In this document: positions 1 to 39,543 of the stretch, piece after piece | How positions within the stretch are numbered: the first letter of the stretch is position 1 | How the letters are laid out: each line of letters starts with the position of its first letter | Source: a virus | IMG/VR virus record: IMGVR_UViG_3300028027_000090 | Coordinates: 1 to 45,548 of that record | Length of the DNA stretch: 45,548 nt | Reading direction: 5' to 3' (one strand) | Made by a program: the position numbers and the translations under genes | Notes under the pieces: model-generated | Database searches by the model: none | What the model was told of the DNA's origin: nothing | Seen by the model: the letters and a program-made list of their open reading frames with translations, nothing else

Positions 1-1322
1 CTTCCAATACGCTTACAATAAATGAAAGAAGGCAAATAGATTACTATCTATATCTAACTAATCAAAAATTTGAAGACGTTTTCAATGACTATTATAACAA
101 TGGTGGTATGATACAAGAAGAATACTTTGGAAGTGGTTTAGTAAGTGGTGTTACAAACTTATTTTCAAAAGGTGTGGATTGGATAGAAAAGGGTGCACTG
201 AAAAGTGCTAAGTCAATAAGTGATGCGGCAAAAAAAGGATTTGAAAAATTATTAAAAGGTGTCGAAACGGTATTGCAGTTTGGTGAAAAAATATACAATC
301 AATTTTTAGAAGGATTTACTAAAGTGATAAGTAAATTAGAAGAATATTCTAGTAACGCATTTGCTAGTATTACACCAAATGATAGTAAAATGACTCAATT
401 TAATGATGCTATGATAGAGTATATTGCAGAAGAATCTGATAAATTACCGGATTATTTTGAACGTTTAATAAACGGTGGGAAATCACTAGCTATACTTTTC
501 ACAAACCTATCTAAAAAGATAGCTTTAAAGCTAAAAGAATTCTTCACCAATCTATTTTCAAAAGAAAAGATAACTGACTCATACTCGTATGAATCTTTTA
601 TCAGTTATCAAATGAATGAAGAGATAAAGCTAACAGGAAATTTCTTCGACAACATAACTGAATTTATTAAAACTACAAGACCATTTAGTTGGCTGATAGA
701 GCTTGCACAATATTTAGAAAATCTAACTGGTAAAATAATGTTAAAGATAAAGGGTAAAATTGTTGATTTCATTAAAGATATTAGTGATGCAGATATGGCG
801 AAAGGTGCAGGATTTGTTAAGAAGACGAATGAAAGTTCATATGATGGTGATTTTTTGTTTGAGGGATTTTCTTCATCATTTGCAGTATCTGCCTCGCGAC
901 CGCTTTCATTGGCAATAGACATGATGCAAATCTATTCAATGATATACATTAAAGGCATCAATAACGATACAGAAAAATGGGCAGATTTAGCCAAGAACAT
1001 TCTTACTGGTGATTTGTTAGGAACAGCAGAAGAAGGATTTAAAATGCTAACAAAAGGTGCTCTAGTGGCTGGCAAGGAGGCATTCACTGCGGCCTCGGCT
1101 GCCTTTCCATGGGTAATGCCTGTGATAAAAGGAATATCTTTGTTTTTTACCTTATATGGACTTTGGAAGAAAATAAAGCCAATGATAATAGCAGCAAAAG
1201 AAAAAATAAAGGCAAAGCTATCAAAGACTGGAACGACGGTACCTTCATCGGGTGCGACCGCATCTACACCGGGAGCAACAGCATCTACACCGGGAGCAAC
1301 CGCATCCGCAGCGAGTCAATAG
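1..1322 (+). CDS. Partial amphipathic, possibly membrane-active protein (5' end outside window)
   Basis: The reading frame is open from the first full codon at base 3, so the gene starts before the window and the ATG at 108 is only an internal methionine. The visible protein is rich in amphipathic helices (Lys/Phe/Leu), with hydrophobic stretches in its last third (around the residues encoded at 1060-1180) followed by a Lys-rich segment and a low-complexity tail of three GATAS(TP)-type repeats. No family is recognised. The helices and hydrophobic C-terminal third would fit a virion protein that meets a membrane, such as a pilot or internal protein, but this is inference. It stops 14 bases before the tagged ADP-ribosyltransferase-like gene, so the two are probably co-transcribed. 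Confidence 0.7.
   Translation, partial: SNTLTINERRQIDYYLYLTNQKFEDVFNDYYNNGGMIQEEYFGSGLVSGVTNLFSKGVDWIEKGALKSAKSISDAAKKGFEKLLKGVETVLQFGEKIYNQFLEGFTKVISKLEEYSSNAFASITPNDSKMTQFNDAMIEYIAEESDKLPDYFERLINGGKSLAILFTNLSKKIALKLKEFFTNLFSKEKITDSYSYESFISYQMNEEIKLTGNFFDNITEFIKTTRPFSWLIELAQYLENLTGKIMLKIKGKIVDFIKDISDADMAKGAGFVKKTNESSYDGDFLFEGFSSSFAVSASRPLSLAIDMMQIYSMIYIKGINNDTEKWADLAKNILTGDLLGTAEEGFKMLTKGALVAGKEAFTAASAAFPWVMPVIKGISLFFTLYGLWKKIKPMIIAAKEKIKAKLSKTGTTVPSSGATASTPGATASTPGATASAASQ
1250..1312 (+). repeat. Three 21-base tandem repeats in the 3' end of the first gene
   Basis: Units start at 1250, 1271 and 1292 and encode GATASTP-like heptads. The first two differ at a few bases and the third is degenerate at its end. 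They form the disordered C-terminal tail of the protein and could vary in copy number. Confidence 0.75.
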
Positions 1323-1336
1323 AAAATATAAATATT

Positions 1337-1930
1337 ATGAAACACTTAAAAACATTTAAAATATTTGAGTCTTCTATAGTTGAAGTTCTATATCATGGAA
1401 ATAGAAAAGGTAATTTTCCTCCTAAGAGGAAGAGATTTGCCGGTTCTATATTTTTGACAAATAACTTAGAATTCGCAAAAAACTTTGCAGGGTTTGATGA
1501 GAGAGAGAATTTTCCAGAAGGGGCTGTTTGGAAAATAAAATTAAAACCAGGTTTAAAGATTTGTGATCCTACGCAGGAAAAAACGATGAAAGAGATTGAT
1601 TTGAAATCTATATTACAGAAAATGATAGATTCTGAATACGAAGATGCTACAAATGGTAAGAAATTCAGATCAAATAGAGGTAAAGGTTTTAAAGGATTTG
1701 ATTATGATACCGGAAAAGAGTTTGATTTGGAAGATACCTCACAGAGTGTCTACAACTATCTTTGGTTAGTAAAGAATGGTTCTTGGCAGATAATTGAATG
1801 TGAACCAATCATCAAAGAAATCAGAGATAGGAAATACGATGGTTTCGAAGTTACGGAGCTAGGTATAAAAAATGTGGCAATATTTGATGAATCATCAATC
1901 GAAAAATTCGAAAAAATAACTGACTTATGA
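1337..1930 (+). CDS. Tagged ADP-ribosyltransferase-like protein
   Basis: A 197-residue protein beginning MKHLKTFKIFE, one of the recurrent tags of this window. After the tag, a YHG motif (residues 19-21), a SIFLTNNLEFAKNFA segment (37-51) and a C-terminal YDG (167-169) followed by VAIFDESSIEKF match the usual layout of phage and polyvalent-protein ADP-ribosyltransferase folds: an NAD-binding [YF]HG strand, then a [FI]xT-N-x-x-x-A-x-x-[FY] helix, then YDG...hhhFD...I. The frame is open upstream to 1109, but that extension reads out of frame through the preceding gene, so the tagged ATG at 1337 was chosen. By analogy with T4 Alt (a head-packaged, injected ART with a cleavable N-terminal tag) it may modify host proteins at infection. 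The fold is inferred from motifs only and the catalytic Glu was not assigned. Confidence 0.6.
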   Translation: MKHLKTFKIFESSIVEVLYHGNRKGNFPPKRKRFAGSIFLTNNLEFAKNFAGFDERENFPEGAVWKIKLKPGLKICDPTQEKTMKEIDLKSILQKMIDSEYEDATNGKKFRSNRGKGFKGFDYDTGKEFDLEDTSQSVYNYLWLVKNGSWQIIECEPIIKEIRDRKYDGFEVTELGIKNVAIFDESSIEKFEKITDL

Positions 1931-2190
1931 CACTCCCATTTCAGGAAACTAAAATAAGCGATAGCACATTTATCAGAGAGTTTAGTCAAGACACAGATTC
2001 TGGTGAAATGTGCTGGCATCGCGACAGAGAAGATCGAATAGTCGAATCTATAGGCGAAACCGATTGGATGGTCCAGCTAGACAACGAGCTACCAAAGAAG
2101 ATAGAAGGCGAAGTTTTTATACCGATAGGCGTCTATCATCGCTTGATAAAAGGAACAGGAGACTTGAAAATAAAACTAAAAAAGCTATGA
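1927..2190 (+). CDS. Small cupin-like protein
   Basis: An 87-residue protein. Its ATG overlaps the TGA of the tagged ART-like gene (ATGA), so the two are translationally coupled. The sequence WHRDREDR, then GETDW, QLDNELP, FIPIGVYHRLIKGTGDL has the spacing of a small one-barrel cupin-like fold common in phage genomes, with His residues in both halves that could bind a metal. No reaction can be assigned. Its own TGA overlaps another ATG (2187) that begins an orphan tag, so it was once followed by a further coupled gene. Confidence 0.5.
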   Translation: MTLPFQETKISDSTFIREFSQDTDSGEMCWHRDREDRIVESIGETDWMVQLDNELPKKIEGEVFIPIGVYHRLIKGTGDLKIKLKKL

Positions 2191-3749: not shown

Positions 3750-4157
3750 ATGAAATACATTAAAACTTTTGAAGATTCTCAATGGGAGAACGAAGGAAGC
3801 TCTGATTTCGAGAGAGTAGTTCCTAAAAGAAAAATCGATGAAGATTTTGAAATAAAAGCAGAATCTATTGCAAATCTAATTTTAAATTGTCCTGAATATT
3901 CAAGATTGAAAGAGTTGGCATTGCGTGTTGAGATGAATGTAGAATTTGGACCTGGAGAGGAACCATCTTTTTTTCATGAATTAGAAAAATGCTTTCCAGG
4001 TTTAAACTTAAACCAAAGACAGTTAGTAAACACAGGAGCAAAAGTTCCTTTTTACGGTAGAATGAAAAAAATTGGAGTCAATTCAGATGACACGGCGGAT
4101 TTTTATCTTCCAATGTATATAGCTCAAAAAGTTCAAGAACCGGGATATAAATACTAA
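3750..4157 (+). CDS. Tagged protein of unknown function (135 aa)
   Basis: Begins MKYIKTFEDS, a strong example of the recurrent tag with Glu at position 8. The rest is not recognised: an acidic linker, a helical part (NLILNCPEYSRLKELALRVEMNVEFGP) and a C-terminal part ending DFYLPMYIAQKVQEPGYKY. It has its own late-type promoter and terminator and sits between the direct repeats at 3544 and 4172. By context it is probably an internal head protein. Function after delivery is unknown. Confidence 0.65.
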   Translation: MKYIKTFEDSQWENEGSSDFERVVPKRKIDEDFEIKAESIANLILNCPEYSRLKELALRVEMNVEFGPGEEPSFFHELEKCFPGLNLNQRQLVNTGAKVPFYGRMKKIGVNSDDTADFYLPMYIAQKVQEPGYKY

Positions 4158-6282: not shown

Positions 6283-6429
6283 ATGAAGACACTAAAAATA
6301 AGCAAAGAATTACATTCGGATATAAAAAAATATTGCAGTGAAAATGGAATTAAATTAAGCCATTGGGTCGAGAAACAGCTAAGTGCCAAAATAAAGGAAT
6401 TTATAAATGAGTGTGGAAAAAAGAGCTAA
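6283..6429 (+). CDS. Small RHH-like or helical protein (48 aa)
   Basis: ATG at 6283, stop at 6427-6429. The protein MKTLKISKELHSDIKKYCSE... followed by NGIKLSHWVEKQL has the pattern of a short beta strand and two helices seen in ribbon-helix-helix DNA-binding proteins (the h-x-h-S/x-x-hhxxhKxxhxxxgxxhsxWhxxxL pattern). It overlaps the start of the homing endonuclease gene at 6407 by 23 bases, which suggests translational coupling. It may regulate or accompany that gene. It lies just after the tail tube terminator. Confidence 0.5.
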   Translation: MKTLKISKELHSDIKKYCSENGIKLSHWVEKQLSAKIKEFINECGKKS

Positions 6430-8071
6430 AATTATAGATGATGCTATTGCTGGCTCGCCTAATAGATTGAGAGAAAAATATTTTATCAAATATAATCCCG
6501 ATTTGTATAGCGAGATTTTATCCTATGCCATTGATATCGATTTACCATTCAAGCAAAAAGTCTGGCATTGGGTTAACGGCGAGAAGGATTATATCTATTG
6601 TAAAGAGTGCAATTTGAATAGAGTTTCTCCTAAAATGAATTGGCGAGAAGGCTATAAAGATTTTTGTTCCAATAAATGTTCATCGAACAATGTGCGGCTG
6701 AGAGACAAAACTAAAAAGACTCTGTTAGAAAAATATGGAGTAGAACACTATTCAAAAACTGATGAATATACTATTAAGGTGAAGAAGACCTCGCTCGAAA
6801 AGTGGGGAGTCGATAATTACGCAAAAACGCCCGATTATGTAGAGAAGTCAAAAAGGACATATATGGATAGGTATGGTGTCGATAGCTATACAAAAACAAT
6901 CGAATTTTTAAAAAAATCAAAAAGCACTTGCCTAGAAAAGTATGGAGTCGATAGCTATATAAAAACCGATGAATTTAAGGATAGGTTTAAAAAGACTTGT
7001 TTGGAGAGATATGGATTTGATCATATATATAAATCGCCTTTGTATAGGAGCTCTTTTAATCTATGTAATGATTTAAACTATTTGGGATATAATGACGGTT
7101 TGAATTTGTTTAGATGTGAAAATGGTCACAATTTTGAAATAACAACAGATAATTATTATGGCAGATACAAAAACAATATATCATTGTGCACTATTTGCAA
7201 TCCGATTGGTGATACGAGATCGATTAAAGAGGAAGAATTGTATAGATTTATCAGATCTGTTTATAATGGAGAGATAATTAAATCACATCGAGATACTTTT
7301 GAGATTGATGTTTACTTACCCGAAATCAATGTGGGTTTTGAGTTTAATGGTCTATACTACCATTCCAATAAATTCAAAGATAAAAACTATCATATAGATA
7401 AGACAAATTATTTCAAAGAAAAGAATATTAGGATAATACATATATGGGAAGACGATTGGGATAAGAAAAGGTCTATTGTCGAGAGCCAGATTAAGAATAT
7501 CATGAATTTGAATTGTAATAGGATATATGCCAGAGATTGTATCGTTCGCGAGATAGGCGATTCTGGATTGGTTCGAGACTTTCTGTCTATTAACCATATA
7601 CAGGGTAATGATAGAAGTATCAAGAATATTGGCTTGTATTACAATGAAGAATTGGTTTCGCTGATGACATTCAATAAGTCAGAAGGTCGTAAAAAAATGA
7701 GCAATCTTGAGTGGAATTTGAGTAGATTTTGTAATATATTGAATGGGAATGTCATAGGAGGTGCCTCGAAATTATTATCACACTTTATAAAAATTTATAA
7801 CCCAGATCGTATTATAAGCTATGCCGATAAAGATTGGAGCGTTGGTAATCTTTATAAGAGATTAAAATTCGAGTGTATTGGTGAAACTAATCCTGATTAT
7901 AAATATGTTATAGATGGCGTTAGGAAACATAAGCAGAATTTTACAAAGTCTAGGCTTAAAATAGATAGTAATCTAACAGAAAGTAGATATATGAGCATGA
8001 ATAAAATCAATAAAATTTATGATTGTGGTAAGATGAAATTTGAGTTATTACCAATAAAAAACCCACTTTAA
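6407..8071 (+). CDS. Homing-endonuclease-like protein, copy 1 (five helical repeats, Vsr-like nuclease)
   Basis: 554 residues. N-terminal zinc finger (YCKEC about 65, FCSNKCSS about 87), then five repeats of about 25 residues of the form KKTxLEKYGVDxYxKT (about 102-225), a second CxxC element (LCTIC), then a nuclease domain with FEIDVYLP, VGFEFNGLYYHS and IRIIHIWEDDW (about 303-350), the signature of Vsr/EDxHD-type or PD-(D/E)XK homing endonucleases. A conserved C-terminal domain follows (GLYYNEELVSLMTF, WNLSRFCN, VIGGASKLL, YADKDWS). It is inserted between the tail tube and the gp26-like genes. It shares the full architecture with copies at 9323 and 33106 and the N-terminus with 41901. It is probably mobile and not needed for the virion. 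Confidence 0.8.
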   Translation: MSVEKRAKIIDDAIAGSPNRLREKYFIKYNPDLYSEILSYAIDIDLPFKQKVWHWVNGEKDYIYCKECNLNRVSPKMNWREGYKDFCSNKCSSNNVRLRDKTKKTLLEKYGVEHYSKTDEYTIKVKKTSLEKWGVDNYAKTPDYVEKSKRTYMDRYGVDSYTKTIEFLKKSKSTCLEKYGVDSYIKTDEFKDRFKKTCLERYGFDHIYKSPLYRSSFNLCNDLNYLGYNDGLNLFRCENGHNFEITTDNYYGRYKNNISLCTICNPIGDTRSIKEEELYRFIRSVYNGEIIKSHRDTFEIDVYLPEINVGFEFNGLYYHSNKFKDKNYHIDKTNYFKEKNIRIIHIWEDDWDKKRSIVESQIKNIMNLNCNRIYARDCIVREIGDSGLVRDFLSINHIQGNDRSIKNIGLYYNEELVSLMTFNKSEGRKKMSNLEWNLSRFCNILNGNVIGGASKLLSHFIKIYNPDRIISYADKDWSVGNLYKRLKFECIGETNPDYKYVIDGVRKHKQNFTKSRLKIDSNLTESRYMSMNKINKIYDCGKMKFELLPIKNPL

Positions 8072-9322: not shown

Positions 9323-11017
9323 TTAATTTATTCGCCATATCCATTTTTTGTTTCCTGCGTTGTATATTCTCCAATATCCTAGCTCTGCCATTATCTCCTC
9401 TTCAGTCTTTTCCTTGTCATGTCCCATTTTTATTAGTCGCTGCTTTCTCCAGTTGAATCGGTGCTCTCTTATTCCATTTACCACATACCAATACCCAGGC
9501 TTTGAATCGCTTTCATTATTGAATCCTAATTTTTCGTATAGCTCTCCATCTGAAATTAAATTGTCCGAATATGTTTGTATCTCGACTGGCTTATATTTTT
9601 CTATGAAATACTTCTTGAGCTTGGATGCACCTCCTGTTACGCTGGTGTTTATGCTGTTGCAAAATCTTGTCAGCTCATATGTATTTTCGGCGTTCTTTCC
9701 ACCAAGCGGCATCCTGAGCTTTGAGAATGTCATCAGGCTTACAAGCTCTCCCTCATGATATAGTCCCAATCTTATAGATGACTTGCAATCTCCTTGCAGG
9801 TGGTTTTTGTATAGAAAGTCTTTTGACGATAGATAGTCGACTTCTCTTAAAATGGTCTTTCTCGCCATAACTCTATTGACCTTTCTTATTTTGTTCAGAA
9901 TGAACGATTGGCAAATTTCTCTTTTTGTCGTCCAGTCATCTTCCCATATAGTTATTATTCTGACATCGTTTTTAACGCCTTCATTATATTTTTTCAAATG
10001 GTAGTCATTCTTTTTAAACTTTGCAGAGTGCCAGAATACTCCATTGAATTCAAAGCCTATTTTTAGCACAGGTAGATATATGTCGATTTCGTATGGGGCT
10101 ATTATCGATTTTGTATTTTGTATTATTTCCCCGTCATAGTTGAATTTTATGAAGTTGTATAGCTCTGCTTGGTCTATCGACGAATTTTCGGATATCGGAA
10201 AGCATTCCGTGCATATTGAGTTTTTTTGGTTTATCCTGTAGTAAAATTGATATGGCAATATAGAAAATTCGCTTTTGCATTCTTTACAGTTGAATATAAG
10301 ATTGGTATCTAGTCCGATTTTTTCGAATTTTACAAATTCGAAATCTGAATTTTCGGTTTTTTCGAGGATTCTATCTCTATAGCTTCTATAGAAAATTTCT
10401 ATGGTCTTTTTGTGTATATCTTTGTCTTTCCAAGGGTGGTTGACTCCGTATCTCTGCAAAGAAGTTTTTTTATAGCTTTCTTTATATTCGCTGTTCTTGA
10501 ATGATTCGATTCTTTTTGACAGAATATCTTTGGAGTGTGATGGATTAGCGACGCCCCAGTTTCTGAATAGCGTCTTTCTTGCCTTTTCTTTCGTCTTTTC
10601 TGATGACATAGGAGAATTTCCGCCCCATTTCCTGTTGTTGGTTTCGATTATTCTGTCTTTGACCTCTTTGGATTGCGCAGGAGTCTTTGTTCCGTATCTT
10701 TCTAAGGATTTCGATTCCTTCATTCTTTTTATCTTTGGGTCGCTGGAGATGCATTTATTTGAGCAGTAGCTTAGATATCCCAATGTGGAATTTTTAAATT
10801 TGACCGCGTTGTCACAGCTTTCGTTTTGGCATTTTGGCATTTGCAAATATTCGTTTATGGTCAAAAAAACCTTTTCTTTGAATGTGTACGTGCACATACC
10901 ATTGCGCTTGCAGTATTCTAATATAAAGTCATATTCTTCTTTGTGACATCTCATCACATATGATTCTTTTGACATCTTTCCTGAGGGATCCGCCATTCTG
11001 AATATATCCAAATTCAT
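9323..11017 (-). CDS. Homing-endonuclease-like protein, copy 2 (four helical repeats)
   Basis: 564 residues with the same order as the 6407 gene: CxxxxC...CSNKC zinc finger (about 62-90), four repeats (ESKSLERYGT, NNRKWGGNSP, RKTLFRNWGVANP, KKTSLQRYGVNHP), CKEC and CTEC elements, then the nuclease motifs YEIDIYLP, IGFEFNGVFWHS and VRIITIWEDDW, and the C-terminal LVSLMTF / TGGASKL domain. It lies between the sheath terminator and the gp26-like gene, with its own late-type promoter. Sequence identity to copy 1 is low outside motifs, so these are old paralogues or independent arrivals. Confidence 0.8.
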   Translation of the reverse strand: MNLDIFRMADPSGKMSKESYVMRCHKEEYDFILEYCKRNGMCTYTFKEKVFLTINEYLQMPKCQNESCDNAVKFKNSTLGYLSYCSNKCISSDPKIKRMKESKSLERYGTKTPAQSKEVKDRIIETNNRKWGGNSPMSSEKTKEKARKTLFRNWGVANPSHSKDILSKRIESFKNSEYKESYKKTSLQRYGVNHPWKDKDIHKKTIEIFYRSYRDRILEKTENSDFEFVKFEKIGLDTNLIFNCKECKSEFSILPYQFYYRINQKNSICTECFPISENSSIDQAELYNFIKFNYDGEIIQNTKSIIAPYEIDIYLPVLKIGFEFNGVFWHSAKFKKNDYHLKKYNEGVKNDVRIITIWEDDWTTKREICQSFILNKIRKVNRVMARKTILREVDYLSSKDFLYKNHLQGDCKSSIRLGLYHEGELVSLMTFSKLRMPLGGKNAENTYELTRFCNSINTSVTGGASKLKKYFIEKYKPVEIQTYSDNLISDGELYEKLGFNNESDSKPGYWYVVNGIREHRFNWRKQRLIKMGHDKEKTEEEIMAELGYWRIYNAGNKKWIWRIN

Positions 11018-15115: not shown

Positions 15116-15658
15116 TTAAATAGAAGTCGCTTTTTTAGAAGAGTCTTGCATTTCCTTTTTTATTTCTTCCATTTTCTTTTTTTGCTCTGCCTCTGCCACC
15201 AATAAATCTTTCTTCAGCTTCGCTATTTCTTGCGTCTTTATCGATTGATTCGACTTTATGTCGTTTATGGTCTTTGTTTTTGCGGACACGTCCCCCTTTT
15301 CGCTTGCTATCATCTTGAGGTCTTCCTCGTTTTTGTAAAGGTCGTCGTTGTATTTCAACAATTCGTCCTGAACATACTTTATCTTGATTTGAAGGTTCAT
15401 CATTCGTGTGTACTCTTCTATGAAGGGATTGTTCGGAAACTTTTTCTTTATCTCGTCTATCTTCTTGTTTAGCAACTCGTTGTCCTTGTTGCTTTTTAGA
15501 TTCATGAACGCCTTGTCGAGCTCGGACTTGACCGCTGGAAAGTCCTTTATGCTCTTTTCCAGCTGGTTTGTCTCTTCCTTGGCTAGCTTTACGTCTGGTT
15601 CGTCGGTGACAGCCACTTCTATATTTTCGAAATACTTGAATTTCTTTAGATATCTCAT
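15116..15658 (-). CDS. Tagged coiled-coil protein (180 aa)
   Basis: Begins MRYLKKFKYFENI, the recurrent tag with Glu at position 11. The rest is almost entirely charged helix with heptad character (LEKSIKDFPAVKSELDKAF..., then KTQEIAKLKKDLLVAEAEQKK), so a coiled coil or scaffold-core protein is likely. It starts one base after the stop of the 1125-residue gene (TAAGATG) and is therefore coupled to it. By analogy with T4 prohead core and internal proteins it may sit in the prohead. Specific function unknown. Confidence 0.65.
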   Translation of the reverse strand: MRYLKKFKYFENIEVAVTDEPDVKLAKEETNQLEKSIKDFPAVKSELDKAFMNLKSNKDNELLNKKIDEIKKKFPNNPFIEEYTRMMNLQIKIKYVQDELLKYNDDLYKNEEDLKMIASEKGDVSAKTKTINDIKSNQSIKTQEIAKLKKDLLVAEAEQKKKMEEIKKEMQDSSKKATSI

Positions 15659-33105: not shown

Positions 33106-34581
33106 ATGATATTAATAGATAAGATAAAATTAGAAACGTTTGGAAACAGAAGATTGAAATATTATTCAGATTTGGGATATGATATATCTGGTGAATATTT
33201 TGAAATAAGAATAGAAGATTTGAATATAGGTTCGAGAAAAATTGTACCAGTTAATTGTGATTATTGTAATAAAGATGTTAATATAACTTATAGAGAATAT
33301 AAAAGAAATATATTACTTGGTAATAAGTATGCCTGTTGTAAATTTTGTGGTTCTAAAAAAGCAAAAGAGACCAATATTAAAAATATTGGTGTTGAAAATC
33401 ACATGATGTTGGATGAGACACAAGAAAAAACTAAAAAGACTAATTTAGAAAGATATGGTGTTGAGTTTTTGCAGCAATCAGATAAAATTAAACAGAGAAG
33501 TAAAATAACCTTGCTTAATAAATGGGGAGTCGACCATATATCAAAATCTGAAAAAATTAGATTAATAACATCAAATATATCAAATGATGTTGATTATTTA
33601 AAATATATTGGTAATAATGAATCTGAATTATTTTGCAATAAATGTAATGAAAAATATAAAATAAAAAATGATAATTACTACCACAGAAATAAATCCAATC
33701 TACCATTATGTACAATATGTTTCCCAATTAGTGAAAACTCATCACTTAAAGAAATTGAATTAAGAAATTATATAAATTCAATCTATGATGGTGAATTAAT
33801 AAGTTCATATAGAGATGGTTTAGAAATTGATATTTTTTTACCAGATTTGAATATAGGATTTGAATTTAATGGACTTTATTGGCATTCTGATAAATTTAAA
33901 GAAAGTGTGTATCATTTGAATAAAACTAATTATTTTAAGGATAAAGGAATTCGAATTATACACATCTGGGAAGATGATTGGGTTTATAAAAATCCAATTA
34001 TAAAATCACAGATATTAAATTTATTAAAAATAAATAGTGAAAAGATATTTGCTAGAAAATGTGTTGTTATGGAGGTTGATGTAAAAACTACAAGAAAATT
34101 TCTAGATGATAATCACATACAAGGAAAATCAAACTCCGTTAAAAAGGTTGGATTATATTATAATGATGAATTAGTTAGTTTAATGACCTTTGATAATTTC
34201 GAGGGTCGTAAGAAAATGGAAGAAGATGGTTGGAATTTATCTAGATTTTGTAATAAATTAAATACTAATGTAATAGGTGGTGCGAGTAAGTTACTAAATT
34301 ATTTCATAAAAAAGTATAATCCATCAAGAATTGTTAGTTATGCAGATAAAGATTGGTCAATTGGTGCTCTATACCAAACATTGGGATTTGAAAATGTGGG
34401 AGGTAATGGACCAGATTATAAATATATAGTTGATGGTAAAAGAGTACATAAATCTAGATATAAGAAATCTAAACTTAATACAGAACTAACAGAATCTAAA
34501 CAAATGGAGTTAAATGGAATTAATAAAATATTTGACTGTGGCAAGACTAAATTTGAACTTTTAAATAATAAATCTCTATAA
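33106..34581 (+). CDS. Homing-endonuclease-like protein, copy 3 (three helical repeats)
   Basis: 491 residues. N-terminal part with C-x-x-C (CDYCNK) and CKFCGS zinc pairs, three repeats (KETNIKNIGVENH, KKTNLERYGVEF, ITLLNKWGVDH), CNKC and CTICF elements, nuclease motifs LEIDIFLP, IGFEFNGLYWHS, IRIIHIWEDDW, and the C-terminal LVSLMTFDNF / VIGGASKLL / YADKDWS domain. The gene is clearly more AT-rich than its neighbours (about 22% GC in one sampled line near 33721), indicating recent transfer. It lies between the 427-aa gene and gp55. Its N-terminus resembles the fragment at 41901. Confidence 0.82.
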   Translation: MILIDKIKLETFGNRRLKYYSDLGYDISGEYFEIRIEDLNIGSRKIVPVNCDYCNKDVNITYREYKRNILLGNKYACCKFCGSKKAKETNIKNIGVENHMMLDETQEKTKKTNLERYGVEFLQQSDKIKQRSKITLLNKWGVDHISKSEKIRLITSNISNDVDYLKYIGNNESELFCNKCNEKYKIKNDNYYHRNKSNLPLCTICFPISENSSLKEIELRNYINSIYDGELISSYRDGLEIDIFLPDLNIGFEFNGLYWHSDKFKESVYHLNKTNYFKDKGIRIIHIWEDDWVYKNPIIKSQILNLLKINSEKIFARKCVVMEVDVKTTRKFLDDNHIQGKSNSVKKVGLYYNDELVSLMTFDNFEGRKKMEEDGWNLSRFCNKLNTNVIGGASKLLNYFIKKYNPSRIVSYADKDWSIGALYQTLGFENVGGNGPDYKYIVDGKRVHKSRYKKSKLNTELTESKQMELNGINKIFDCGKTKFELLNNKSL

Positions 34582-35317: not shown

Positions 35318-35620
35318 ATGAACAAGGTTATTTTGCAGATTTGGGAAGAATCGGAAAGAGGCTGGGGAACAAGGCCTGACGGATGCTCTATGCATATAGA
35401 TCAAAAAGAAAGAGATCGATACATACAGGCTATCTATGACAGCAGAAAGTCTGACACTGCAATACCTCACGAGTATGAAAGGATTGTTGGCACCGGAGTC
35501 GATGCGTTTATAGAAGATTCGCTTTTTTTGCTTGTTCAAAAAGACAGGTCAATTAGGCTTACTCAGTATCAGATGAACAATCTTATGGGAATGGAAGAAA
35601 TTACAATAAACGAAATATGA
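35318..35620 (+). CDS. Hypothetical protein (100 aa)
   Basis: Not recognised. A soluble protein with WEESERGWGTRPDGCSMHID near the N-terminus and GTGVDAFIEDSLFLLVQKDRSIRLTQYQ in the second half. It overlaps the membrane-protein gene by ATGA, so it is coupled to it. Confidence 0.55.
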   Translation: MNKVILQIWEESERGWGTRPDGCSMHIDQKERDRYIQAIYDSRKSDTAIPHEYERIVGTGVDAFIEDSLFLLVQKDRSIRLTQYQMNNLMGMEEITINEI

Positions 35621-37830: not shown

Positions 37831-39543
37831 ATGGCATCATATAATTACAATAGCAACAAAGAAGGACAGGGCATGGGCTTCGTAAACTCAGCGGTAGAGA
37901 ACAAAGGACTCTTCAGCCGGATATTGAGAACCCTTTCGAACTATGGCATGAACTATGATGATATGATTGTCAGGAACCAGGTCGGTATCGGAATCAATGA
38001 AGATCCATACGCAGCCAAAGGAAATTCGATGTATGATTTTTTTAGTCAAAGAGCTGTCGCTTCTGTATTGAACCGAAAGTCTATTCCTTATCTAGACAAG
38101 GCATATGGGGACAAGAGAAGGATTCTTAGAGAATATTCTATAAAGGACGAGATAAGAGACATGATTAGTGCAGTCGCTGATGAATGCATCGTATACAACG
38201 ACGATAGAGATTTTTGCTCTCCAAGGCCGATATCCAACGACTACTCTCAAGAGATAAACGACAAATACCAAGAATATTTTGAAAAGATATACAGCAAGTA
38301 TGGATTCTCTGATAGCATAACCGCATGGAACATGATGAAAGACTTTCTCATAGACGGCTATGTAGCAATCGAGATTGTATATGATGACAAGAAGAAGAAC
38401 ATCATCGCTTTCAACAGGCTTAGGCCAGAAACGCTTGTTCCTGCATACGAGCCAAACGTAGGACACCTTTGGATACAGTTTCCTGAAGATCCTCAATTGA
38501 GAAGAATATTCTTAGATTCGCAGATTGTCTTTGTTTCTTATTCTACACAAAATGATTATTCTGAAACTTCTTATGTAGAAGGACTTATCAAGCCATATAA
38601 TCAATTAAAGATACTTGAACAAACTAAAATTATGTTCAACGTGATAAACGCGACAATCTACCAAAAGTTTACTATTCCAATCAAAGGTCTTTCTAGACAA
38701 AGAGCGGAAGAACAGATTGGTCAACTTATACACGATTATTCCGAAGAAGTAGAATGGGATGATACATTGGGAACGCTTACTCTTAACGGTGCGAAGCATC
38801 TTCCATACAACAAGCAGATATGGTTTCCAGAAGGAGACGGAGGAACTCCAAACATGGAGCTTGTCTCTCCGCAAGGACATGACTTGAATGAAGATGGTAT
38901 GCTTAAATGGTTTCACCAGGCGCTTAAAAGAGCTTCTAAGATTCCATTGACTCGATTCGAAGGAGAAAGTGGAGGAGGAAATCTCGTAGACGGCGCTGCC
39001 GAGATGACGAGAGACGAGATTAAGTTTCACAATTTTATATCTAGAATCAGAGCAAACTTCAAAGAGCTTATAGTAAAGCCACTCAAGCTACAGATGCTTA
39101 TCGAGTTTCCTGAGCTGAAAGAAGATGAGATTATTCTTAACCAGATGGATATTGTTTTCTACACGAACCAGATATTCGAGGAGTGGAAGAAGATAAACAA
39201 CTTGGCAAAGAGGGCAGAAGCGATAACCACGCTTACTGGTATCATGAATGGTGATAAGCCTTATTTCCACATCGAATGGATCATGGACAACGTATTCAAG
39301 CTTACTCCAGAAGAAAAAGCAGAAAACCAAAAATACTGGGCAAAAGATGGTGTTGGCGGTGCTGGTGCTGGACCGGAAGGCGCAGCAGGCGAAGGCGGTG
39401 CTGAAGGCGGAATGCCTGCACAAGGCGGTGGCGAAATGCCTGCTCAAGGCGGTGCCCAAGCTGCTCCTGAAGCTCCTGCCCAAGGAGGTGGTCAAGCTAC
39501 ACCTGAAGCTCCTGCACAAGGCGGTGGAGAATTCGAATTCTAA
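37831..39543 (+). CDS. 20: Portal protein (T4 gp20-like)
   Basis: 570 residues (T4 gp20: 524). Landmarks: the RNRVSLPYLDKAY-like KSIPYLDKAYGDKRRILREYS (about 83-103), VADECIVYN, AFNRLRPETLVPAYE, IWFPEGDGGTPNMELV (about 328-343), and ALKRASKIPLTRFE, all typical of gp20. Twelve copies form the vertex ring through which DNA is packaged and to which gp17 docks. The last about 60 residues are Gly/Ala/Pro/Gln repeats (GGGEMPAQGG type) not found in T4. Confidence 0.93.
   Translation: MASYNYNSNKEGQGMGFVNSAVENKGLFSRILRTLSNYGMNYDDMIVRNQVGIGINEDPYAAKGNSMYDFFSQRAVASVLNRKSIPYLDKAYGDKRRILREYSIKDEIRDMISAVADECIVYNDDRDFCSPRPISNDYSQEINDKYQEYFEKIYSKYGFSDSITAWNMMKDFLIDGYVAIEIVYDDKKKNIIAFNRLRPETLVPAYEPNVGHLWIQFPEDPQLRRIFLDSQIVFVSYSTQNDYSETSYVEGLIKPYNQLKILEQTKIMFNVINATIYQKFTIPIKGLSRQRAEEQIGQLIHDYSEEVEWDDTLGTLTLNGAKHLPYNKQIWFPEGDGGTPNMELVSPQGHDLNEDGMLKWFHQALKRASKIPLTRFEGESGGGNLVDGAAEMTRDEIKFHNFISRIRANFKELIVKPLKLQMLIEFPELKEDEIILNQMDIVFYTNQIFEEWKKINNLAKRAEAITTLTGIMNGDKPYFHIEWIMDNVFKLTPEEKAENQKYWAKDGVGGAGAGPEGAAGEGGAEGGMPAQGGGEMPAQGGAQAAPEAPAQGGGQATPEAPAQGGGEFEF
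39360..39540 (+). repeat. Gly/Ala/Gln-coding repeat at the portal C-terminus
   Basis: Units of about 30-45 bases (GCACAAGGCGGTGGC-like) encode PAQGGGE and PEAPAQGG. Disordered tail. It resembles in kind the QGQ repeats of other virion proteins. Confidence 0.7.

What the first reader, a model, noticed from the sequence alone, without database searches (positions are those of the whole stretch)
1337..1930. Tagged ADP-ribosyltransferase-like protein: a possible Alt-type injected effector
The 197-residue protein combines the tag with YHG at 19-21, a F-L-T-N helix segment and a terminal YDG...IFD...I pattern typical of ADP-ribosyltransferase folds. T4 Alt is a head-packaged ART that modifies host RNA polymerase at once on entry, with an N-terminal targeting sequence processed by gp21. 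This gene would be a shorter independent analogue in a Bacteroidota phage. The motifs are read from sequence; the activity is inferred.
Basis: partly seen in the sequence, partly recalled or inferred. Interest (0 to 1): 0.72.

Follow-up and report, generated by a model that had tools for sequence, protein, structure and literature searches.

The report
Tagged ADP-ribosyltransferase-fold phage effector candidate
A huge-phage gene encodes a small protein with the fold of enzymes that stick ADP-ribose onto other molecules, behind a short removable-looking address tag shared with many unrelated proteins of the same phages; it is probably carried inside the virus particle and injected at infection, as related proteins in known phages appear to be, although its active site is unusual.

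Summary
The gene is real: 1337-1930, 197 aa, 23 unique homologues (52-81% identical) in uncultured large-phage contigs, dN/dS about 0.1. An AlphaFold model from a 19-sequence alignment (pLDDT 87.6) matches the ADP-ribosyltransferase (ART) superfamily: viral hits are ART-PolyVal proteins (best E 2e-7) and nearly all top solved structures are ARTs. No sequence profile passes its cut-off. The N-terminal "MKHLKTFKIFES" tag is a genuine modular leader: 52 ORFs in four related genomes carry it (0.4 expected by shuffling), on 38 unrelated bodies, with synonymous codon variation. In the ART family [IL]-F-E-[S/N] ends the leader in 21 of 23; the phages carry gp23-like capsid and gp21-like protease genes. 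The best precedent is not T4 Alt but Dickeya phage LIMEstone1 ORF173: a one-domain ART-PolyVal protein with leader MKTFLQYLQES, found in virions by mass spectrometry (one peptide). So "tagged, head-packaged ART-fold effector" is supported; "Alt-type" is not, because the Alt clade is R-S-E whereas this is H-F-N, and ART-PolyVal is H-Y-D/E. The invariant F39 and N179 leave open whether it transfers ADP-ribose, hydrolyses NAD or only binds. Target unknown. New variant of a known kind.

The parts
1337..1930 (+). ART-fold protein gene, 197 aa (P0001)
1337..1372 (+). N-terminal leader MKHLKTFKIFES; predicted prohead-protease cleavage after IFE (residue 11); disordered in the model
   Evidence: residues 1-14 under pLDDT 50; [IL]FE in 21 of 23; cleavage itself inferred
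1391..1399 (+). YHG (residues 19-21), strand 1; H20 at the NAD-binding His position of H-Y-E/D ARTs
   Evidence: invariant in 23 of 23; strand E18-22
1445..1486 (+). Strand 2 and following helix SIFLTNNLEFAKNF (37-50); F39 and F50 where ART-PolyVal relatives often have Tyr
1547..1777 (+). About 75-residue insert (about residues 71-147) between strand 3 and the helix before the YDGF strand; absent from one natural variant (L011/L043, 109 aa)
1835..1885 (+). C-terminal strands YDGFEVTELGIKNVAIF (167-183); N179 at the position of the catalytic Glu of H-Y-E ARTs
   Evidence: strands E169-174 and E177-182; N179 invariant; alignment to Mutine and LIMEstone1 by motif
1927..2190 (+). Conserved downstream partner, 87 aa (WHRDREDR...GETDW...YHRLIKG), start overlapping the ART stop by 4 bases
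   Evidence: near the ART in most loci, also without it in Flavobacterium phage immuto and Methylophilales phage Melnitz
43376..45493 (+). Head maturation (prohead) protease, 705 aa: the enzyme expected to remove the leader
   Evidence: phrog_207 E 2e-30; Peptidase_S77 weak, E 0.01
37831..39543 (+). Portal protein
   Evidence: phrog_213 E 3e-58
28426..29076 (+). Another tagged protein, MRYLKTFESHSSKDILIIVDVQKSFKKFF (216 aa, unrelated body)
27654..28346 (+). Another tagged protein, MKHIRQFESFRIRKN (230 aa, unrelated body)
15116..15658 (-). Another tagged protein, MRYLKKFKYFENIEV (180 aa)
3750..4157 (+). Another tagged protein, MKYIKTFEDSQWE (135 aa)

Best explanation
The gene makes a small single-domain ART-fold protein of the ART-PolyVal type, preceded by a 12-residue modular leader. 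The leader directs it into the prohead core; the prohead protease probably clips it after I-F-E; the body is packaged with the DNA and injected at infection, where it acts on a host NAD- or ADP-ribose-dependent target. Shown here: fold (predicted model), modular leader, presence of T4-like head and protease genes, purifying selection. Inferred: packaging, cleavage and injection (by analogy to T4 internal proteins and to LIMEstone1 ORF173). Unknown: chemistry and target. The H-F-N active site means transfer of ADP-ribose should not be assumed.
For: Model with pLDDT 87.6, pTM 0.80. BFVD: 28 hits at E<=1e-3; the hits with informative names are mostly ART-PolyVal or polyvalent proteins. PDB: top five Foldseek rows are ARTs (RES/MbcT and an anti-CRISPR), though E 0.02-0.06; VIA-align Z 5.6-7.2 with RES, diphtheria catalytic domain, ParT, Tpt1, NatT, PARP chains. 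ART-PolyVal at E 0.0016 (2 members) and phrog_26711 'virion structural protein' at E 0.0013 (4 members), below or near threshold. Leader: 52 tagged ORFs vs 0.4 expected, 38 body families; synonymous codons vary, so the constraint is on the peptide; [IL]FE[SN] in 21 of 23 homologues. Precedent: LIMEstone1 ORF173 passes the Pfam ART-PolyVal cut-off (47.2 bits), starts MKTFLQYLQES, and is a mass-spectrometry-confirmed virion protein (PMC3296691 Table 2). ARTs are enriched in myoviruses and often lie near head genes (PMC9503650).
Against: No sequence profile reaches its cut-off. VIA Z stays below 8 and Foldseek PDB E is above 0.01. Strand-2 Tyr and strand-5 Glu/Asp are Phe and Asn in all 23 homologues. 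LIMEstone1 ORF173 rests on one peptide. About 5-10% of genes in these phages carry the tag, many of unknown role, and no virion proteome exists for these uncultured phages. In the wider tagged set the residue three before the Glu is often not I or L.
Confidence: 0.62

Rival explanations
1. ART-fold pseudoenzyme or NAD/ADP-ribose binder: packaged and injected, but it works by binding NAD, ADP-ribose signals or a host protein, not by transfer.
For: F39, F50 and N179 are invariant at positions where relatives carry Tyr and Glu; strong purifying selection shows that the altered site is kept, not decaying.
Against: H20, E154 and E174 are invariant and one Glu could serve; mono-ART and NADase members of the superfamily lack the canonical Glu (own knowledge).
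Confidence: 0.25
2. Not injected: made late in the infected cell, where the leader serves another purpose (compartment targeting, complex assembly), and the protein acts in superinfection exclusion or host control.
For: The tag is on 5-10% of genes, including putative HAD and P-loop proteins with no known head role; packaging has not been seen directly.
Against: Leader length and its Glu fit T4-type capsid-targeting peptides; a tagged ART-PolyVal protein is in LIMEstone1 virions.
Confidence: 0.22
3. Toxin-antitoxin pair with the downstream 87-aa gene as antidote.
For: 4-base overlap and near-constant adjacency in about 20 loci; RES and ParT toxins are among the best structural matches.
Against: The partner occurs without the ART in Flavobacterium phage immuto and Methylophilales phage Melnitz, and the ART without the partner in L037, L039, L041, L042 and L044.
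Confidence: 0.08
4. A genuine homologue of T4 Alt (R-S-E clade).
For: ART fold and presumed packaging only.
Against: His in strand 1, no R-S-E residues, viral structure hits are ART-PolyVal, no Alt-family profile match.
Confidence: 0.03

Closest known systems
ART-PolyVal proteins of Ackermannviridae (LIMEstone1 ORF173, Salmonella phage Mutine)
   Same: Single ART domain behind a 10-12 residue MK...F...E[S/A] leader, YHG strand 1, FYLT/IFLT strand 2, T4-related phage with a head maturation protease
   Different: Those pass the Pfam cut-off and keep Y in strand 2 and E in strand 5; ours has F and N and a ~75-residue insert, and only weak profile similarity
ART domains of phage polyvalent proteins (Roseovarius Plymouth podovirus 1)
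   Same: YHG in strand 1, and its GLFFTNSLELARDYA resembles SIFLTNNLEFAKNFA
   Different: Those are domains of very large multidomain proteins; ours stands alone with a leader
T4 Alt
   Same: Phage ART; packaged and injected (Alt known, ours inferred)
   Different: Alt is R-S-E clade; ours is about 197 aa with His in strand 1
T4 internal proteins IPII/IPIII with capsid-targeting sequence
   Same: About 10-residue N-terminal leader ending at a Glu-based prohead-protease site
   Different: Leader here is M[KR][HY][LI]K.F, found on dozens of proteins; bodies unrelated to the IPs as far as tested
RES toxins (MbcT, P. putida RES), ParT, NatT and an ART-fold anti-CRISPR (6kyf)
   Same: Nearest solved folds
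   Different: 8-15% identity; these are toxin-antitoxin or anti-CRISPR proteins without such a leader

Membership tests
ART superfamily | ART fold (split beta-sheet core) | tested here: met
   AlphaFold model; matches dominated by ARTs; predicted, not solved, and PDB scores are modest
ART-PolyVal (PF18760) | Profile score over the curated cut-off (31.2 bits) | tested here: not met
   best E 0.0016 in 2 of 19 members, no hit for the window protein; no match in whole related records
ART-PolyVal / H-Y-[EDQ] clade | His in strand 1 | tested here: met
   H20 invariant in 23 unique homologues, in strand E18-22
ART-PolyVal / H-Y-[EDQ] clade | Tyr in strand 2 | tested here: not met
   F39 in 23 of 23, although Roseovarius Plymouth podovirus 1 also has F there
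ART-PolyVal / H-Y-[EDQ] clade | Asp, Glu or Gln in strand 5 | tested here: inconclusive
   N179 by motif alignment; no residue-level structural alignment was available, and the profile alignment did not reach this part
T4 Alt/VIP2 (R-S-E clade) | R-S-E active site | tested here: not met
   strand 1 has YHG; clade definitions from PMC5512222
T4-type capsid-targeted internal protein | Short N-terminal leader shared by otherwise unrelated proteins | tested here: met
   52 tagged ORFs, 38 body families, 0.4 expected
T4-type capsid-targeted internal protein | Cleavage after Glu by the prohead protease, and presence in virions | not testable with these tools
   motif [IL]FE fits, protease gene present; no virion proteome

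The most novel reading that the evidence does not exclude
Huge phages of this group load a large, modular set of dozens of leader-tagged proteins into the head, and this one is an ART-fold member with a rewired H-F-N active site that uses NAD or ADP-ribose in a way not seen in characterised ARTs, for instance against host NAD-based immune signalling.
Probability: 0.2. Interest if true: 0.8.

Novelty: new variant of a known kind. Interest (0 to 1): 0.58.

Why it matters
If right, the leader becomes a sequence-only handle for listing the injected proteins of uncultured huge phages: 52 were found in four genome records here. The ART member, with a conserved but non-canonical active site, would be a testable new form of early host attack or NAD-signal counter-defence. 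The LIMEstone1 comparison also gives a cultured system (ORF173, ORF174) for testing leader-driven packaging of an ART.

Tried and rejected
Sequence searches of Pfam, PHROGs, NCBIfam, PADLOC and PDB gave nothing over threshold. No homologue in GenBank phages, plasmids or prokaryote genomes at the sensitivities used. Alt homology rejected on active-site clade. Toxin-antitoxin with the 87-aa neighbour considered and downgraded because each occurs without the other. A shared translation-start DNA element as the cause of the tag was rejected: synonymous codons vary. A regex test of leaders among MS-confirmed versus other LIMEstone1 proteins was not decisive: 2 of 16 confirmed unknowns, 0 of 19 confirmed with known role, 11 of 154 others, the last mostly loose matches; I do not use it as support. 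Profile alignment to the Ackermannviridae ARTs covered only the N-terminal half (73 columns, E 3e-4 for one comparison, probability 38%).

Full report
Observation. The window is a 45,548-base virus record. The gene at 1337-1930 encodes 197 residues. Homologues in 32 full-length sequences (23 unique, window included) from large-phage contigs, some over 430 kb, are 52-81% identical. They start at the same tagged Met, fixing the start at 1337 rather than the longer ORF from 1109. dN/dS between pairs is about 0.1, so this is a constrained protein. No homologue was found in GenBank phages, plasmids or the prokaryote genome collection.

Fold. No profile library names it; two members touch ART-PolyVal at E 0.0016, and four touch a PHROG of virion structural proteins at E 0.0013. 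With 7 sequences the model was mediocre (pLDDT 70); with 19 it reached pLDDT 87.6, pTM 0.80, only the leader being disordered. Against viral predicted structures the informative hits are ART-PolyVal and polyvalent proteins (best E 2e-7, 28 at E<=1e-3). Against solved structures, VIA-align gives Z 5.6-7.2 with RES toxins, diphtheria catalytic domain, ParT, MbcT, Tpt1, NatT, PARPs and an anti-CRISPR; Foldseek's five best PDB rows are also ARTs, at weak E-values of 0.02-0.06. Each score is modest, but the list is almost uniformly one superfamily, and the poorer first model gave the same list. I put the ART fold at about 0.93.

Active site. H20 of YHG in strand 1 is invariant. The strand-2 position that is Tyr in LIMEstone1 and Mutine (FYLT) is F39 here (also Phe in the Roseovarius prototype). 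The strand-5 position that is Glu in those relatives (REVVVY, EEMVVF) is N179 by motif alignment, invariant. E154 and E174 are invariant and could replace it. This H-F-N pattern is neither the H-Y-D of polyvalent ARTs nor the R-S-E of Alt (definitions in PMC5512222). Without model coordinates the strand-5 assignment stays a sequence reading.

Leader. MKHLKTFKIFES belongs to a leader of the form M[KR][HY][LI]K.FE or M[KR][HY][LI]K..K[IL]FES. In the window and three related records (G002, G005, G007) 52 ORFs carry it against 0.4 expected after shuffling N-termini; behind it lie 38 unrelated body families. Codons for Leu, His, Tyr and Phe vary synonymously, so selection is on the peptide. In the ART family the leader ends [IL]FE[SN] in 21 of 23; the other two sequences carry a different leader, MNLQEQTYKMKKLMGLKELTLEN, so the leader appears to be swapped as a unit. 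T4 internal proteins have 10-20 residue capsid-targeting peptides, and prohead proteases of T4 and giant phages cleave after Glu (PMC9958956; PMC5694885). The window has a portal and a head maturation protease, and a close relative has a gp23-type capsid protein.

Precedent. Searching for better-annotated ART-PolyVal proteins led to Salmonella phage Mutine (41.9 bits) and Dickeya phage LIMEstone1 ORF173 (47.2 bits). Both have the same layout: MKTFLEFYRES or MKTFLQYLQES, then the YHG strand. ORF173 is listed among LIMEstone1 virion proteins by mass spectrometry, with one unique peptide and 11.84% coverage; its neighbour ORF174, starting MPTSKLFES, is listed too (PMC3296691; record note; translation). 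Thus a leader-tagged single-domain ART-PolyVal protein is probably a virion protein in a T4-related phage. PMC9503650 argues generally that myovirus ARTs are packaged and injected.

Context. The ART gene overlaps by 4 bases an 87-aa gene (WHRDREDR...) that follows it in most loci, within a few kilobases of the tail tube gene. That neighbour occurs without the ART in two cultured phages, so an obligate toxin-antitoxin pair is unlikely. By capsid protein, relative G005 groups with 634-735 kb uncultured phages, then with Prevotella Lak and Tenacibaculum phages; a Bacteroidota host is plausible, not shown.

Verdict. It is a new variant of a known kind; the activity and target are open.

Noticed in passing
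L011 328-657 and L043 328-657 (same contig): A 109-aa homologue lacks just the ~75-residue insert and joins GAVWEV directly to IECEPII, leaving a minimal ART core; could be natural deletion or assembly error.
   Followed up: partly
window 28426-29076: Tagged 216-aa protein whose body (LIIVDVQKSFKKFF) looks like an isochorismatase/nicotinamidase-type hydrolase by eye; no Pfam match; conserved with its tag in G002, G005 and G007.
   Followed up: partly
window 35318-35620: A 100-aa ORF ends in QYQMNNLMGMEEITINEI, similar to the alternative N-terminal leader (QTYKMKKLMGLKELTLEN) of the ART in L037-L040, but at its C-terminus.
   Followed up: partly
window 108-1322: The upstream gene is cut by the record start (open to base 3) and ends in a repeated ATASTPG tail; weak phiKZ internal head protein match (E 0.004).
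   Followed up: no
window 6407-8071, 9323-11017, 33106-34581: Several large homing/HNH endonuclease-like genes (two matched by PHROG, one similar by sequence) scattered among the tail and head genes.
   Followed up: no
L101 3495-3953 (LIMEstone1 ORF174): Virion-confirmed neighbour of the ART-PolyVal gene starts MPTSKLFES, sharing the LFES end of the tag found here.
   Followed up: partly
PDB 9k3a_B: Top structural match of the model is a cyanophage A4 pre-ejectosome chain (Z 7.2), which may contain an ART-like domain in an ejected protein; not examined.
   Followed up: no
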